A stretch of 25,954 nt of DNA from a virus. A program made the translations under genes and the position numbers. The notes under the pieces are model-generated. The model ran no database searches and was not told the DNA's origin. It was given only the letters and a program-made list of their open reading frames with translations. Position 1 is the first letter of the stretch; each line of letters opens with the position of its first letter. Where the stretch lies: positions 1 to 25,954 of the IMG/VR virus record IMGVR_UViG_3300025082_000063. One strand, given 5' to 3'. Shown piece by piece: positions 5,485 through 25,827 of the stretch.

Positions 5485-7166
5485 CAGTCCACCCACCCCT
5501 CGGGGCCGCCTTCGGTCACGAGGTCCCTGAGGACGGAGGTGAGCTGCCCCTGGAGGTTGGTTTCTTTTTCGAGGAGGGCATCGACGTCCTCCCCATTGAG
5601 GCTGGCGTCGTTGATCCGCTTCCGGTTCCTCTCCAGGGTCGCGATCAGAGTGCGCGCCGTTCTGTTGGTCCGGCCATGGGCGGCCTCGTCGGCGTCCAGG
5701 TCCCTCTTGTAGGCGGCCATGAAGATGTCGTGCTCCTTCGCCGCGGCAGCCGCCCGCTCCTTCCGCGCCGCAGCGTCTTCAGCGGCTGCCGCGGCAGCCG
5801 CTGCCCTCGCATCCTGGAGGCTCATAACCCTGCCCGTGATGAGGTTCGACAGCTCGACGGGGCTGATCTTGGACCTCCCGGTGGCCAGGTCCCTGATCTC
5901 CTTCTCCGTCAGCTTCGCGTAGGCCTTGTCGTACCCGCCCGCATTCCCGATGCTGATGACCTCTTCCTGCTCCGCGCTCCGCTGGCCGGAGGGGGTGTCG
6001 CGAGCGGCGAAGTAGGCGCGCACGTCGGCGTCCTCCTTCGGCTTGCGCGCGGGGGGCGGCCTCCCTCCGCCCTGGCCCCTTCGCGCTTCTCGGTCCTCGA
6101 TCTTCTTGGCCTCGACGCCGGCCTTCCGGCCCTTCATCACCTTCCCGTAGATCTCCGCCATCGCCCTGGAGGACTCCATGTCACCCGTCGAGGACATCTG
6201 CTTGTTGCGGGCCATGAACGCCAGCAGCGCCTCCCGCTTGGCGCCCAAGAGGCGGTCGTTGGTGCCCGCCAGGAGGTCCGACAGGTTCCGAGGGCCAAGG
6301 TCTGGGGCGGCCTCGAGCGCACGCATGATGCGCTTGAGGTCATTCGTCGAGCCGCCCTGGTGTGCGATGTAGAAGATCTCATCCGCATCCGAGGGCATCT
6401 GAGACCAGTAGGACGCGCGATAGGGCGACGGGGCCAAGGGCTGCGGCCCTTGCCGCGTCTTGTGGTACTGCTCCCACGCGGTCTGTAGCAGCATCGCATC
6501 CCGGCTGAACGTCCCGGCTCCCGGTCGCTCGGCCTGCTCGGGCGGGCGATGCGGGTCGCGGGCATCTGCCGGCGGGTCCATCCCACCCAGCCTCCGGGCT
6601 GCGGCGGCAGTGGCAGCTTTCAGCGCCCCACCAGGGTCTCCCACGCCTGGTTCCGGGCCATCGGTCCCCCGGAGCCAGTTGAGAGCATCCATCGCCCTCC
6701 TGCGCATGATGCCGCGATCCGAGATGGACCCGCCCGACAACCCCGCCCCGCCTCGTGCAAAGGGGTTCGCTCTCGCCCGCTCGGAGTCGACGTCCGCCCT
6801 CGCGTCCGCCCTCCGCGCCCGATAGCCATCCCACGGCTGGGCGGCCGAAGTGCGCATGTCGTAAGGGTCTCTGCCCTGTGCGCCCACGGCGGCTCGCTGC
6901 CTTGCGACTCGCTGCTCGGGGGTCCCCTCCCACTTGCCCTCCTGCTTGCCGCCCCTGCCGGCCCAGAGCCCGCCCTGGATGATCAGGTCCGTGACCGGGC
7001 TCGTGACGATGCCCTCGGCCACGCCCAGCCAGCGGTTGATCTCCTCCGCCGCCTTGGCCGAATCAGACTCCGGCGGAGGGGGCGGCCGTGTGCCCACACG
7101 AGCGCTCAGGTAGGGCGACGGGGCCTGGGCCCCCAGCATCCCCCTTGGGAGGCGTAGGCGGGCCAT
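5484..7166 (-). CDS. Putative internal virion protein, Ala/Arg-rich, 560 aa
   Basis: 560 residues, starting at ATG 7166, which shares a base with the upstream TAA (TAATG), and ending in the TGATG that starts the giant protein. The N-terminal half is Pro/Arg/Gly-rich and probably disordered (PPPPPE at about residues 29-34). The C-terminal half looks helical and may form a coiled coil, with an alanine run (RAAAAAAAAED) and many charged residues. No catalytic motif is visible. It lies between a 212-aa Gln/Ala-rich protein and the giant ejection protein, the usual place of inner core or ejection proteins in podoviruses, so a role in the ejected core is inferred from position alone. It could equally be an assembly factor. 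Confidence 0.7.
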   Translation of the reverse strand: MARLRLPRGMLGAQAPSPYLSARVGTRPPPPPESDSAKAAEEINRWLGVAEGIVTSPVTDLIIQGGLWAGRGGKQEGKWEGTPEQRVARQRAAVGAQGRDPYDMRTSAAQPWDGYRARRADARADVDSERARANPFARGGAGLSGGSISDRGIMRRRAMDALNWLRGTDGPEPGVGDPGGALKAATAAAARRLGGMDPPADARDPHRPPEQAERPGAGTFSRDAMLLQTAWEQYHKTRQGPQPLAPSPYRASYWSQMPSDADEIFYIAHQGGSTNDLKRIMRALEAAPDLGPRNLSDLLAGTNDRLLGAKREALLAFMARNKQMSSTGDMESSRAMAEIYGKVMKGRKAGVEAKKIEDREARRGQGGGRPPPARKPKEDADVRAYFAARDTPSGQRSAEQEEVISIGNAGGYDKAYAKLTEKEIRDLATGRSKISPVELSNLITGRVMSLQDARAAAAAAAAEDAAARKERAAAAAKEHDIFMAAYKRDLDADEAAHGRTNRTARTLIATLERNRKRINDASLNGEDVDALLEKETNLQGQLTSVLRDLVTEGGPEGWVD

Positions 7167-22668: not shown

Positions 22669-22866
22669 CTAGCCCCAACCTACCGCTCGGTCAATACTCC
22701 AGACCCTCGCCGGGTCCCGCTCGACCCAGGTATGGAAGGTGGCGCAGTCGTGCGCGCCAGCGACGATGTTCTCCTCCGGGACAACGATCCCGCAGGTGTT
22801 GCATCGCCACTTCCACCCGCCACCGGCGGGCGAATAACCCCGGAACATCCAGTCGATGTGACTCAT
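22669..22866 (-). CDS. Small putative zinc-binding protein, 65 aa
   Basis: 65 residues from ATG 22866, which overlaps the helicase stop by four bases (ATGA); the frame is open further upstream but that part only overlaps the helicase. C22 and C25 (RCNTCG) with H39, C41 and H45 (HDCATFH) could form a small zinc site of the CxxC plus His/Cys kind. The flanks are Trp-rich (HIDWMF, GGWKW). This looks like a mini zinc-ribbon or rubredoxin-knuckle protein; such proteins often bind nucleic acid or act as adaptors, but no specific family is recognised. Coupled expression with the helicase suggests a replication-linked role. Confidence 0.62.
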   Translation of the reverse strand: MSHIDWMFRGYSPAGGGWKWRCNTCGIVVPEENIVAGAHDCATFHTWVERDPARVWSIDRAVGWG

Positions 22867-24176
22867 CCCCGCTCCTTGAAGCAGACCCTCGCCGGATCCC
22901 ACCCCACCCGGTCCTCCTTGAACGTCACCCCACACTCCCCATGCCTGAACTTGTCCAGCGTCAACTGAGCATCGTACTGACTCGCCGTCTCATCCGCACG
23001 CCGGGGCAGCCAAGGCACCAGCACCACGTCCGCAGCGTCATCCGCCTCCCCCGAACCCTTCGTGTCCGTCCCCTTCGGCGCTACCCCCTTCCGCTTCGCC
23101 GAAGACGTGGGCTGAGAGACCAGCACCACCACACACCCCTGGTCCACCGCCAACTGCTTGAGTTCCCGAGCGCTCTGAGACAGCACCTCCTCCCGCGTGG
23201 CGTCCTTCCCACCACCACTCATGAGCTGGAGATAGTCCACCACCACCATCCCACCCTCGACGCCCACCTTCTTGGCCCGCCGAGTAATCGCAGCCACCGA
23301 ACGGTCCCGGGCGATGGTGATGGGCATCAGCGAGAGCTTGTCCGCTGCATCCATCAACCCCGTCAGGTCGTCCGAAGACATCCCCGGACGGTCATGCACA
23401 TGCGGGGGGACACTGCTCAGGGCCCCCAGTTGGCGCCCCACAAGCTCCTGGGAGGGCATCTCGAGGCTCTCCAAGAGCACCGACCGCCCCGCCTTGGCGC
23501 ACTCCAAGGCCAGGTTGTTCACCGCCAAGGCCGTCTTCCCGTGCCCGTTGACGCTCAGCACCATCACCAGCCACCCCGGCTTGAAGCCACCCCCCAGAGG
23601 CTCGTCGATGGGCAGGTTCGTCTGGATGCGGTCCGGCTCCTTGCGGCCCTCCTGGATGGCGATGACCCCCTCCATGTAGGAGGCCACCCCCGCCGCCATC
23701 TCCACCGCGTCATCAGAGACCGGGGCTGCACCCAACTCTGCCGTCGCCAAGTCGTGGTAGTCCGTGACGCTGAGGTTCTCCGCAGCCTCCGTGATGCGAC
23801 GCCCCGCCTCCGCCATCCGACGCCGCTCCGCAAGAGCCCCCAGATGCACCAGCATCGTGTCCAGCGACCGAGGAGAACACACCGTCGTCATCAGCCCAGA
23901 GACGCTCGCCATGCCCCCGATGGCCTTCATCTGACCCGCTGCCCGGATCCGAGCCACGAGGGCCACCTCGTCCCACTCCAGCCCCTCCTTGGCCATCTGA
24001 GCCATGAAGGTCGAGAGCACCCGGTGCTTCTGACAGGACCAGACCTCCGAAGGCAACTCGATGAGGCGGTCGGCCTCCGAGGGCCAGCAGAGGATGGCGC
24101 CGAGGATGGTCGCCTCGAGCTTCTCGTCACGAAGGCTGCTCGCCCCCTGACCCAGGACGTGGATAGTCGCCGTCAC
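22863..24176 (-). CDS. DnaB-type replicative DNA helicase
   Basis: 437 residues from GTG 24176, preceded by AAGGAG seven bases upstream, so the 50-base overlap with the HTH gene appears real. The N-terminal helical domain (LEATILGAILCWP, 20-32, onward) matches the DnaB N-domain. A linker follows at about 150-185. The RecA-like core has Walker A SVNGHGKT (208-215), SLEMPSQEL (237-245), Walker B VVVDYLQLM (311-319, D314) and VLVSQPT (351-357). It should form a hexamer that unwinds DNA at the replication fork on the lagging strand. Length is a little short compared with cellular DnaB (about 470). It has no primase domain, no intein, and no primase or DNA polymerase gene is nearby, so the phage must have these elsewhere or use the host's. 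Confidence 0.92.
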   Translation of the reverse strand: MTATIHVLGQGASSLRDEKLEATILGAILCWPSEADRLIELPSEVWSCQKHRVLSTFMAQMAKEGLEWDEVALVARIRAAGQMKAIGGMASVSGLMTTVCSPRSLDTMLVHLGALAERRRMAEAGRRITEAAENLSVTDYHDLATAELGAAPVSDDAVEMAAGVASYMEGVIAIQEGRKEPDRIQTNLPIDEPLGGGFKPGWLVMVLSVNGHGKTALAVNNLALECAKAGRSVLLESLEMPSQELVGRQLGALSSVPPHVHDRPGMSSDDLTGLMDAADKLSLMPITIARDRSVAAITRRAKKVGVEGGMVVVDYLQLMSGGGKDATREEVLSQSARELKQLAVDQGCVVVLVSQPTSSAKRKGVAPKGTDTKGSGEADDAADVVLVPWLPRRADETASQYDAQLTLDKFRHGECGVTFKEDRVGWDPARVCFKERG

Positions 24177-24426
24177 GTATGCGCTCCTTGACAGCCTCGT
24201 CGAGCTGCCTGCGAGTCCAGCCTACACCAGCGGCTAGACGATCCAAGGTAGAGTCGGGCGGACTCCGGTCCGCCGCCGAGTTCCCGCTCCACCCACACTC
24301 AATCAGAGCGATGTAACTGCGATTGCAGTCCAACCACTCCGCAAGTTGCCCCTGAGTGATGTTCAGCTGCCTCCGTCTCGACCGTAGAACATCACCCAGG
24401 GGCGTAGCTTGCCGGCGCTCAGGCAG
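24127..24426 (-). CDS. XRE-family helix-turn-helix protein, apparent CTG start
   Basis: About 99 residues. The HTH is clear: GDVLRSRRRQLNITQGQLAE (11-30), then a turn and SYIALIECG (37-45), the Cro/CI pattern of two helices around a short turn. No ATG, GTG or TTG lies in frame before the HTH, but CTG at 24426 has a perfect GGAGG six to seven bases upstream, inside the end of the previous gene, so I place the start there. A start at the first ATG-like codon (24333, actually TTG) would delete half of the HTH. The C-terminal third is charged and Gly/Pro-rich. It overlaps the helicase start by 50 bases. Likely a phage repressor or regulator. The dyads at 25701-25827 are possible targets. A frameshift fusion with the upstream gene is an alternative. 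Confidence 0.6.
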   Translation of the reverse strand: MPERRQATPLGDVLRSRRRQLNITQGQLAEWLDCNRSYIALIECGWSGNSAADRSPPDSTLDRLAAGVGWTRRQLDEAVKERIRDGDYPRPGSGGEQPS

Positions 24427-24724
24427 CGGCTTCCTCCGCCATGAGCAACTCCGGCTCCGGCTCCAACTCCGGCTCCGGCTCCGACGTCTCGACGCCCCCG
24501 AACGACACGCGCACCCGCCTCTTCACGTCGAAGTCCGCAGAGCCGCAGTCGAAGATGAGGTGCCAGACCTCCTTTCCCGGCTCGTGCCCGTGGTCCTCGA
24601 CGTGGGCCACCGCCTCCGGCTTCGTGGCCCAGCCAAGCCCGCCGAAGATGGGCCAGTAGGCCAACCCCCCGAGAGTCAGCGACTCCTCCTTCATCCACCG
24701 CCACTCACCCTTCTGCTTTGCCAC
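24419..24724 (-). CDS. Unknown small protein with acidic Glu-Pro-Glu-Leu repeat tail
   Basis: 101 residues if started at GTG 24724 (AGGGGG seven bases upstream), overlapping the ribbon-helix-helix gene by 20 bases; ATG 24694 is an alternative. The middle contains Trp/Gly/Phe-rich AYWPIFGGLGWATKP and EVWHLIFDCGS, suggesting a small folded domain, and the C-terminus is acidic (EPEPELEPEPELL, about 82-94) encoded by a perfect 18-bp tandem repeat at 24447-24482. No family recognised. It lies among small regulatory genes that precede the helicase, so an early accessory role is possible. Confidence 0.55.
   Translation of the reverse strand: MAKQKGEWRWMKEESLTLGGLAYWPIFGGLGWATKPEAVAHVEDHGHEPGKEVWHLIFDCGSADFDVKRRVRVSFGGVETSEPEPELEPEPELLMAEEAAA
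24447..24482. repeat. Perfect 18-bp tandem duplication in coding DNA
   Basis: AACTCCGGCTCCGGCTCC is present twice in direct succession, encoding the acidic Glu-Pro-Glu-Leu tail of the 101-aa protein. Likely a slippage-prone, length-variable site. Confidence 0.85.
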
Positions 24725-24884
24725 GCTTGCGCCCCCTGGCCGCCTTCTTGGCAGCCTCCTGTAGAGTCCTCCGAACCACCAGAGACCGAGTCGCCTTCGA
24801 CACCTCTCCAGATGCCTCCAGACGCACGACCTCTTCATCCAGCCACTCGAGCAACGCCCGCGGTAGCCGCACGTTGACACTCAC
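24705..24884 (-). CDS. Ribbon-helix-helix (CopG/Arc-like) DNA-binding protein
   Basis: 59 residues from GTG 24884; the GGGGAGG ribosome site ends six bases upstream, which decides this start over the GTG one codon earlier. MSVNVRLPRALLEWLDEE (1-18) is the beta strand and first helix, and SKATRSLVVRRTLQEA (29-44) is the second helix with the exposed basic face, followed by a basic tail (KKAARGRKRGK). This is the canonical size and order of an RHH dimer, in which paired N-terminal strands read the major groove. The start overlaps the stop of the 26-codon ORF (GTGA). Likely an autoregulator of this early cluster or a regulator of the control region to its right. Confidence 0.75.
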   Translation of the reverse strand: MSVNVRLPRALLEWLDEEVVRLEASGEVSKATRSLVVRRTLQEAAKKAARGRKRGKAEG

Positions 24885-24961: not shown

Positions 24962-25109
24962 GCCCGAACCCCCTCGCGCGTTAACCACTCTCTCACTTGT
25001 CCTTCCCTCCTTGTGAAGCAAACACTACACACACCCTCCACACTAAGCAACCCCTATCTTTACCCTCTCTTTTGGCATGTTTCTTGCAATATTACATACT
25101 CCTAGACAA
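24962..25109. other. Leader region of the leftward operon
   Basis: Noticeably A/T-richer than the coding DNA to the left. It contains the ribosome site of the micro-ORF, a candidate leftward -10 box (25091-25096) and a small hairpin ACTCC/GGAGT (25098-25102 with 25111-25115). I see no ORF in it worth reporting on either strand. Confidence 0.4.
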
Positions 25110-25119
25110 GGGAGTACAA
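25091..25119 (-). promoter_or_regulatory. Candidate leftward sigma70-type promoter for the main operon
   Basis: On the minus strand TTGTAC (25114-25119), 17 bases, then TGTAAT (25091-25096, 5 of 6 to consensus). Transcription would start near 25084 and run through the micro-ORF, regulators, helicase and onward. The -35 box is inside the left arm of the long inverted repeat, so a factor or structure there could control it. The -35 match is only 3 of 6. Confidence 0.35.
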
Positions 25120-25221
25120 GTCTGCTAGGCTTTGCCCTGCCTAGGCAGCGCTAGCGGACGCCCTAAGCGGGAGCCCGCGCGCCAACCAGGCTCAGGCTAA
25201 AGCCTAGCTAGACTTGCTCCC
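25110..25221. repeat. Long imperfect inverted repeat with nested palindromes
   Basis: Left arm 25110-25133 and right arm 25199-25221 are complementary over 22 pairs, interrupted only by a TA bulge (25115-25116) and a one-base bulge in the right arm. Inside the 65-base loop are CTGCCTAGGCAG (25137-25148, perfect palindrome), CGCTAGCG (25149-25156), GCGGGAGCCCGC (25167-25178) and AGGCTAAAGCCT (25194-25205, partly in the right arm). CTAG, usually a rare tetramer in bacterial DNA, occurs repeatedly here. No coding frame explains it. It could be a replication origin element, a packaging or recognition site, or a structured RNA on either strand. Confidence 0.75.
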
Positions 25222-25241
25222 CCTGTGTCAGAGAGTATAAG
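25214..25241 (+). promoter_or_regulatory. Second candidate rightward promoter
   Basis: TTGCTC (25214-25219), 16 bases, TATAAG (25236-25241, 5 of 6). The -35 box overlaps the right arm of the long inverted repeat. Weak -35; alternative to the TTGACA site at 25287. Confidence 0.22.
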
Positions 25242-25286
25242 CCTGAACATAAGTCAAGTAGCTCCTCTTCTCTGTAAAGAGTTTGC

Positions 25287-25315
25287 TTGACAAAGTGTTC
25301 ACGGATACCTACTCT
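25287..25315 (+). promoter_or_regulatory. Candidate rightward promoter with consensus -35
   Basis: TTGACA (25287-25292) is a perfect -35 box, followed by 17 bases and TACTCT (25310-25315), a weak -10. The start would be near 25322, just before the GC hairpin and the two small plus-strand ORFs. GTCAAG at 25253-25258 pairs with CTTGAC at 25286-25291, so the -35 also sits in a dyad. Confidence 0.4.
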
Positions 25316-25332
25316 ACCTTCAGACAGAGAGG

Positions 25333-25452
25333 ATGGAAACGCGGCGCCCCTTGGGGGGGCGCCGCTATTCCTCTCCGACTGTGGGGGCTCGAGTGGAGAA
25401 TCTGTTGTGGGTCCTGGCCAGTGACGTGAAGGTCCTGAAGGGGGAAGGGTGA
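25333..25452 (+). CDS. Small plus-strand ORF, 39 aa (start uncertain)
   Basis: Frame open from ATG 25333 to TGA 25450-25452. AGAGAGG touches the ATG, closer than ideal; in-frame GTGs at 25381 and 25393 (the latter with GGGGG five bases upstream) would give 23- or 19-residue products and leave the hairpin at 25341-25365 in the leader. The C-terminal part reads VENLLWVLASDVKVLKGEG. The stop overlaps the GTG of the following ORF by four bases (GTGA), the coupling used elsewhere in this genome. It could be a leader peptide for the 57-aa protein. No family recognised. Confidence 0.35.
   Translation: METRRPLGGRRYSSPTVGARVENLLWVLASDVKVLKGEG
25341..25365 (+). terminator. Strong 10-bp GC hairpin (terminator, attenuator or leader hairpin)
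   Basis: GCGGCGCCCC (25341-25350), loop TTGGG, GGGGCGCCGC (25356-25365): a perfect 10-bp stem. The downstream tract TATTCCTC is only moderately T-rich, and on the other strand the following bases are GTTTCC, so classic rho-independent termination is uncertain either way. It lies about 20 bases after the predicted rightward start site. Confidence 0.45.
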
Positions 25453-25622
25453 CTCGGGAAGAGGTGATGGTCGTCCTCGAGGAGGCAGTGAGGGACCACC
25501 TCGCCGCAGCTCTCGAGACCGAGAGAGCCCTATCGGCCCTCTACAGGGTCCTCGCAGGAGAAGAACCGGCCCTCATCGCCATCGAGGGGGCGAATCCAAC
25601 CGAGGACGAAGGGGTAACCTGA
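25449..25622 (+). CDS. Small acidic plus-strand protein, 57 aa
   Basis: GTG 25449 follows AAGGGGG by about four bases and the frame runs to TGA 25622. Codon third positions are strongly G/C, like the real genes on the other strand. The product is acidic and helical: TREEVMVVLEEAVRDHLAAA then ALSALYRVLAGEE, with a disordered acidic end (NPTEDEGVT). It resembles a small two-helix phage regulator or anti-regulator but no family is recognised. It is the only well-supported gene facing right, with a TTGACA-type promoter candidate about 130 bases upstream. Minus-strand frames across it lack ribosome sites. Confidence 0.5.
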   Translation: MTREEVMVVLEEAVRDHLAAALETERALSALYRVLAGEEPALIAIEGANPTEDEGVT

Positions 25623-25700: not shown

Positions 25701-25827
25701 ACCGAACGAGCGCTCGGTTTGGGTACAGAGCAACCGCTCGGTAGATAACAGAGCGACCGCTCGGTCAGGGTATCCCCAGCCAACAGAGCGAGCGCTCGGT
25801 ATCCAACCAACCGAACGAGCGCTCGGT
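25701..25827. repeat. Array of five 18-bp dyads (operator or origin iterons)
   Basis: Sites at 25701-25718, 25725-25742, 25748-25765, 25783-25800 and 25810-25827 fit ACMGARCRASCGCTCGGT. The right half CGCTCGGT is identical in all five; the left half matches its complement (ACCGAGCG) at 6-7 of 8 positions, with a two-base spacer. Copies 1 and 5 are identical. Starts are 24, 23, 35 and 27 bases apart. Dyads of this size suit a dimeric HTH repressor; evenly oriented repeats also suit a replication initiator. Confidence 0.82.

What the first reader, a model, noticed from the sequence alone, without database searches (positions are those of the whole stretch)
25110..25221. 112-base element closed by a 22-bp stem, with several nested CTAG-containing palindromes
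The arms match across 22 pairs with only two small bulges, and the loop is packed with perfect palindromes. This is far more structure than a promoter region needs. It is flanked by promoter candidates on both sides, with -35 boxes inside the arms. It may be a structured RNA, an origin, or a cruciform-forming switch between leftward and rightward transcription.
Basis: seen in the sequence. Interest (0 to 1): 0.68.

Follow-up and report, generated by a model that had tools for sequence, protein, structure and literature searches.

The report
Long RNA-type hairpin in phage control region
A marine phage carries, between its two oppositely directed gene sets, a 148-base sequence that can fold into an unusually long hairpin, probably a structured RNA at the head of its replication and virion genes, but no relative of this exact hairpin was found to prove it.

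Summary
25110-25221 closes with 22 pairs and two small bulges, and holds three perfect CTAG palindromes. The hairpin is longer than reported: 61 pairs over 25092-25239. It is the strongest minus-strand fold in the 26-kb phage contig (z -7.5 core, -9.5 extended). It lies in about 460 bp without a gene-sized ORF, between a leftward operon (HTH regulator, DnaB, terminase, virion genes) and small rightward genes, where the best sigma-70-like promoters of the contig also lie.

The minus strand fits an RNA better: 9 G-U pairs against 0 on the plus strand (p about 0.01-0.02 by simulation), and the central part is significant on that strand only. In related marine phages (DnaB about 40% identical) the same place holds a strong promoter followed by a 250-300-nt leader with compensatory changes. 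That supports a structured 5' leader here by analogy, not homology. No homologue of the hairpin was found, so its covariation could not be tested. Rfam has no match.

Best reading: a cis-acting leader hairpin, likely an RNase III substrate (about 0.45). Main rival: twin divergent promoters with palindromic operators acting as DNA. "Origin" and "cruciform switch" remain unsupported.

The parts
25110..25221 (-). Core element as reported: 22-pair closing stem with a folded interior
   Evidence: RNA fold -78.3 kcal/mol, z -7.5 on minus; -65.8, z -5.5 on plus
25092..25239 (-). Full hairpin, 61 pairs, 9 of them G-U on the minus strand
   Evidence: -98.1 kcal/mol, z -9.5 on minus; -78.8, 55 pairs, 0 G-U on plus
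25132..25199 (-). Inner part of the hairpin, significant on the minus strand only
   Evidence: minus -43.6, z -3.2 (6 of 1000 shuffles); plus z -0.6
25137..25148 (.). 12-bp perfect palindrome CTGCCTAGGCAG
25149..25156 (.). 8-bp perfect palindrome CGCTAGCG
25204..25211 (.). 8-bp perfect palindrome CTAGCTAG
25311..25339 (-). Candidate leftward promoter TTTCCA-17-TAGAGT that would transcribe the hairpin
   Evidence: 3rd best minus-strand promoter score in the contig; consensus match only
25287..25315 (+). Candidate rightward promoter TTGACA-17-TACTCT; its -10 overlaps the leftward -10 on the other strand
   Evidence: best plus-strand promoter score in the contig; consensus match only
25091..25119 (-). 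Candidate outward leftward promoter TTGTAC-17-TGTAAT, -35 inside the left arm
   Evidence: 5th best on minus strand
25214..25241 (+). Candidate outward rightward promoter TTGCTC-16-TATAAG, -35 inside the right arm
   Evidence: 11th best on plus strand
25072..25100 (+). Candidate rightward promoter TTGGCA-17-CATACT reading into the hairpin
   Evidence: 2nd best on plus strand
24995..25091 (-). Purine-rich remainder of the inferred leftward leader, with ribosome-binding site AAGGAGGG (25005-25012) before a GTG at 24996
   Evidence: read from sequence; inferred
24705..24884 (-). First larger gene of the leftward operon, 59 aa, ribbon-helix-helix-like by eye
   Evidence: ORF; no Pfam match, so the fold is an inference
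24127..24417 (-). Helix-turn-helix regulator (HTH_31)
   Evidence: Pfam PF13560, E 1.4e-7
22863..24176 (-). DnaB-like replicative helicase of the leftward operon
   Evidence: PHROG 19, E 2.6e-47
25333..25622 (+). Two small overlapping rightward ORFs (37 and 57 aa) on the other side of the hairpin
   Evidence: 37 aa, read by eye; 57 aa; no PHROG match for the 57-aa ORF, no Pfam match for either

Best explanation
The minus strand of 25239-25092 is transcribed as part of the 5' leader of the leftward operon (small regulators, HTH protein, DnaB helicase, terminase, virion genes) and folds into one rod-like hairpin of about 61 pairs. Shown: the fold, its excess over chance, the strand preference of its wobble pairs, the absence of a gene there, and a cluster of promoter-like sites. 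Inferred: that it is transcribed, most simply from TTTCCA-17-TAGAGT at 25339-25311, whose -10 overlaps that of the rightward promoter. Inferred mechanism: because the paired region is much longer than the roughly 22 nt that RNase III needs, the hairpin is probably cut or bound by RNase III, which would set the stability or translation of the operon's first cistrons. A direct action on the elongating polymerase is a less likely variant.
For: Fold far beyond shuffles and strongest on the minus strand of the contig. G-U pairs 9 on minus, 0 on plus; simulated neutral decay of a perfect palindrome gives such a difference in about 1% of cases, or 2% with a modest strand bias. The inner 68 nt exceed shuffles on minus only. 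No ORF of 50 aa or more between 24985 and 25448. Top-ranking promoter-like sites of the contig cluster here. In relatives with a homologous DnaB and the same gene order, a promoter that ranks first on its strand (four of four tested) is followed by a structured leader in the same direction, with compensatory changes: 16 of 40 pairs by RNAalifold; first hairpin 7 of 16 pairs, covariation score above all 500 shuffles. RNase III minimum target size of 22 nt and phage examples (lambda cIII, T7, T3): PMC5371410.
Against: No homologue, so no covariation in the element itself. No transcript data. The leaders of relatives do not share its sequence or overall shape, and a covariance model of their conserved second hairpin matches here only at E 8.3. 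The leftward promoter upstream is only a consensus match; an equally plausible leftward promoter inside the left arm would leave most of the hairpin untranscribed. G-U asymmetry in the same direction is common in other G+T-rich stretches of these phages, and with a two-fold strand bias the simulated p is 0.05.
Confidence: 0.45

Rival explanations
1. DNA-level element: two divergent outward promoters that are inverted copies of each other, sharing CTAG-centred palindromic operators bound by the operon's own HTH or ribbon-helix-helix-like protein. The hairpin is then a by-product of the symmetry.
For: The two outward promoters align over about 40 bp, from GCCTAGC through -35 and spacer to -10. 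Three perfect palindromes with CTAG cores. An HTH regulator gene lies close by. Symmetric divergent control regions are common in phages (general knowledge).
Against: Does not predict that the inner 68 nt pair beyond chance on one strand only, nor the 9:0 wobble split. CTAG spacing (23, 16, 10, 53, 4) shows no regular array.
Confidence: 0.27
2. A separate small RNA made from the minus strand, released from the leader or from its own promoter, acting in trans.
For: Long stable hairpin in an intergenic region.
Against: No intrinsic terminator follows it on the minus strand, and the sequence reads on without a T-run to a ribosome-binding site at 25005-25012.
Confidence: 0.1
3. Single-strand DNA hairpin used in replication (origin or single-strand initiation site). 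G-T wobbles are tolerated in DNA too, so the strand asymmetry would also fit.
For: Lies upstream of the DnaB gene; strand-specific hairpin.
Against: Nothing shows that this phage exposes single strands here. The five 18-bp repeats at 25701-25827 are a more usual origin or operator array.
Confidence: 0.08
4. Decaying inverted duplication of about 70 bp without function beyond the promoters it carries.
For: The arms are imperfect copies of each other; the palindrome is single copy.
Against: Neutral decay should give wobbles evenly on both strands; 9:0 has p of about 0.01-0.02.
Confidence: 0.1

Closest known systems
RNase III-processed leader hairpins of lambda, T7 and T3 mRNAs
   Same: Long double-stranded stem in a phage message, near the head of an operon
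   Different: Far longer single rod (61 pairs); no cleavage data; no sequence relation
HK022 put RNAs (protein-free antitermination leaders)
   Same: Structured leader near a promoter at the head of a phage operon; divergent operons
   Different: put is about 70 nt with two stem-loops and two copies (PMC9378689); here one 148-nt hairpin, single copy
Structured leaders of related marine phages (L226/L230 clade, found here)
   Same: Same place upstream of a homologous DnaB operon, same direction, wobble excess on the coding strand
   Different: Several shorter hairpins in place of one rod; no shared sequence motif by covariance model
Divergent symmetric promoters with shared elements (E. coli bidirectional promoters)
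   Same: Candidate promoters with overlapping -10 on opposite strands at 25310-25316; inverted outward pair at the arms
   Different: The long hairpin between them is not part of that arrangement (PMC12825309)

Membership tests
HK022 put RNA | About 70 nt, two stem-loops | tested here: not met
   Single hairpin of 61 pairs over 148 nt; put described in PMC9378689
HK022 put RNA | Two similar copies, one per divergent early operon | tested here: not met
   Single match in the record by DNA search; note a 21-nt inverted repeat at 25011-25031 / 25273-25293
HK022 put RNA | Suppresses termination through the beta' zinc-binding domain of RNA polymerase | not testable with these tools
   Needs transcription assays
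RNase III-processed phage leader hairpin | Double-stranded region longer than about 22 nt | tested here: met
   61 pairs with small bulges; size criterion from PMC5371410
RNase III-processed phage leader hairpin | Lies in a transcribed leader | tested here: inconclusive
   Promoter-like site upstream on minus strand; no transcript data
RNase III-processed phage leader hairpin | Cleaved by RNase III | not testable with these tools
   Needs RNA
Any Rfam family | Covariance-model score above gathering threshold | tested here: not met
   No match in window at gathering threshold; nothing over the element even at E up to 5
Intrinsic terminator | G+C-rich stem followed by a run of T | tested here: not met
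   No terminator-like site at the element on either strand
Second hairpin of the L226/L230-clade leader RNA | Match to a covariance model built from 8 members | tested here: not met
   Best match at the element: 8.0 bits, E 8.3, although the tip shares CGCTTNGGGC
Symmetric divergent operator/promoter region | Regulator binds the palindromes | not testable with these tools
   Palindromes present; binding unknown

The most novel reading that the evidence does not exclude
The hairpin is a new kind of phage leader RNA that acts directly on the host RNA polymerase or RNase, one of several shape variants that a large group of uncultured marine phages keeps at the head of the DnaB-terminase-virion operon.
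Probability: 0.12. Interest if true: 0.65.

Novelty: new member of a known kind. Interest (0 to 1): 0.38.

Why it matters
If transcribed, it is an undescribed structured leader in a marine phage group for which no isolate close enough to match was found in the phage collection (best helicase match about 26% identical). Together with the covarying leaders found at the same place in relatives, it suggests that these phages regularly put structured RNA at the head of their main operon, which is testable with existing metatranscriptomes.

Tried and rejected
Homologues of the element: DNA searches in the phage records, in ten records holding relatives and in plasmids; pattern scans of viral contigs (the five hits are in A+T-rich contigs without a hairpin); the neighbouring 59-aa protein as query; genome contigs via the capsid protein (one distant MAG). 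None carries the element. The two near-identical contigs (L082/L083) end inside the helicase gene, just before it.

Shared tip motif: the hairpin tip CGCTTAGGGC matches the tip of the second leader hairpin in L230, L215, L218 and L223. Rejected as evidence because a covariance model of that hairpin gives only E 8.3 here, behind 38 better matches in the same window.

Plain MFE comparison of hairpins upstream of DnaB in 70 relatives was uninformative, as high G+C makes long folds everywhere. Long hairpins in L099 (2618-2762) and L010/L011 (4600-4716) lie at similar distances from DnaB, but are not alike in sequence and were not pursued. A terminator, a known Rfam RNA and a repeated mobile element (single copy) were excluded.

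Full report
What is there. The window is a 25,954-base virus record, G+C 66%. The large genes of recognised function read leftward: DnaB helicase (PHROG 19), large terminase, portal and major capsid genes. Upstream of DnaB are an HTH_31 regulator and small coupled ORFs, then about 460 bp without an ORF of 50 aa or more, then two small rightward ORFs. The element sits in the middle of this gap.

The observation. All parts of it hold. The core 25110-25221 has 22 closing pairs with two small bulges, a z-score of -7.5 on the minus strand and -5.5 on the plus strand, and three perfect CTAG palindromes where about 0.34 would be expected. It is the strongest minus-strand fold and the best-scoring hairpin of the window.

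Which strand, RNA or DNA. Across the full hairpin the minus strand has nine G-U pairs and the plus strand none. I simulated neutral decay of a perfect palindrome to the same pair count. A difference this large (either direction) occurs in 1% of cases without strand bias, 2% with a 1.5-fold bias and 5% with a 2-fold bias. The minus-strand G+T share is 0.51 in the genome, 0.60 and 0.53 in the two flanks. The inner 68 nt beat shuffles on the minus strand (6 of 1000) but not on the plus strand. This favours a leftward RNA, with two cautions: G+T-rich stretches in these phages often show the same asymmetry, and a single-stranded DNA hairpin would also tolerate G-T pairs.

Promoters. With a simple sigma-70 matrix, the contig's plus-strand sites ranked 1, 2, 7 and 11 and its minus-strand sites ranked 3 and 5 fall between 25072 and 25339; the minus-strand rank 1 is at 25904-25876. 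The outward pair with -35 boxes in the arms is real as a consensus match, and the two are inverted copies of each other. A leftward site at 25339-25311 would transcribe the hairpin; its -10 overlaps the -10 of the best rightward site, as in the bidirectional promoters of E. coli (PMC12825309). All of this is consensus matching; the host and its promoter rules are unknown.

Relatives. No DNA homologue of the element was found. Phages with a homologous DnaB (35-48% identical) and the same order of terminase and capsid are common in marine viral contigs. In one clade (L215, L218, L219, L223, L225, L226, L228, L229, L230, L232) a promoter of the form TATACA-17-TATAAT, first in rank on its strand in the four tested, lies about 1.7-2.8 kb upstream of DnaB in most members (3.7 kb in L232). 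A leader of 250-300 nt follows that folds well and shows wobble excess on the coding strand. RNAalifold gives 16 of 40 pairs with double-sided changes. The first hairpin keeps its shape in nine members aligned (eight distinct sequences): 7 of 16 pairs with double-sided changes, covariation score 0.272 against 0.145 in shuffles with 0 of 500 reaching it, and well above slid controls. So this phage group does place structured RNA at this spot. The window's own hairpin differs in sequence and shape, and a model of the clade's second hairpin does not recognise it. The link is one of place and direction, not descent.

Mechanism. The best-supported account is a cis-acting leader hairpin of the leftward operon. 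A paired stretch of this length far exceeds the 22-nt minimum RNase III target (PMC5371410), so processing or binding by RNase III is the likeliest action. Transcription and cleavage are inferred, not shown. The main rival is a DNA reading: twin divergent promoters with CTAG operators bound by the operon's regulators. It explains the arms and palindromes well but not the one-strand pairing of the interior. Origin, separate small RNA and non-functional duplication are less likely.

Known families. Rfam has no match. Against put RNA (about 70 nt, two stem-loops, two copies; PMC9378689) the length, shape and copy-number features are not met. It is not an intrinsic terminator.

Verdict. A real and unusual structure, probably an ordinary kind of thing (a phage leader hairpin) in an extreme form. 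Interest is moderate because the decisive evidence, homologues or transcripts, is missing. The covarying leader RNA found in the related clade is the firmer by-product.

Noticed in passing
L226:1187-1470, L230:2209-2490 and the matching places in L215, L218, L219, L223, L225, L228, L229, L232; L220 919-951 (one hairpin): Conserved strong promoter followed by a 250-300-nt structured leader RNA with compensatory changes upstream of the DnaB operon in a marine phage clade; no Rfam match in the seven loci searched and, for L226, no match in the phage records. Possibly a put-like or other regulatory leader.
   Followed up: partly
window 25701-25827: Five copies of an 18-bp palindromic repeat (ACCGAGCGNNCGCTCGGT-like; 5 of the 6 matches in the window, 0.37 expected). 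Similar copies lie near one end of Gordonia phage Culver (L297 55-163). Operator array or origin iterons.
   Followed up: partly
window 25011-25031 and 25273-25293: 21-nt inverted repeat (81%) placed near the start of each divergent operon, TTTGCTTSACAA core; may be a shared operator or a boxA-like leader element.
   Followed up: no
window 25335-25371: G+C-rich hairpin with 16-nt arms, 88% complementary, at the start of the first rightward small ORF, overlapping the -35 of the candidate leftward promoter.
   Followed up: no
L114 20-370: Run of five different long, near-perfect hairpins in a row near the contig end, about 2.5 kb upstream of the terminase gene (z about -6.6 against background).
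   Followed up: no
L006 413-496, L007 about 700-860, L008 about 5870-5925: Long G/C-rich hairpin just before the DnaB gene; the related contigs differ by a compensating G-C to A-T change in the stem.
   Followed up: no
L048 4504-4694: Very strong hairpin (score 124, shuffles 58) about 1.1 kb upstream of a DnaB homologue in an isolate-derived viral contig.
   Followed up: no
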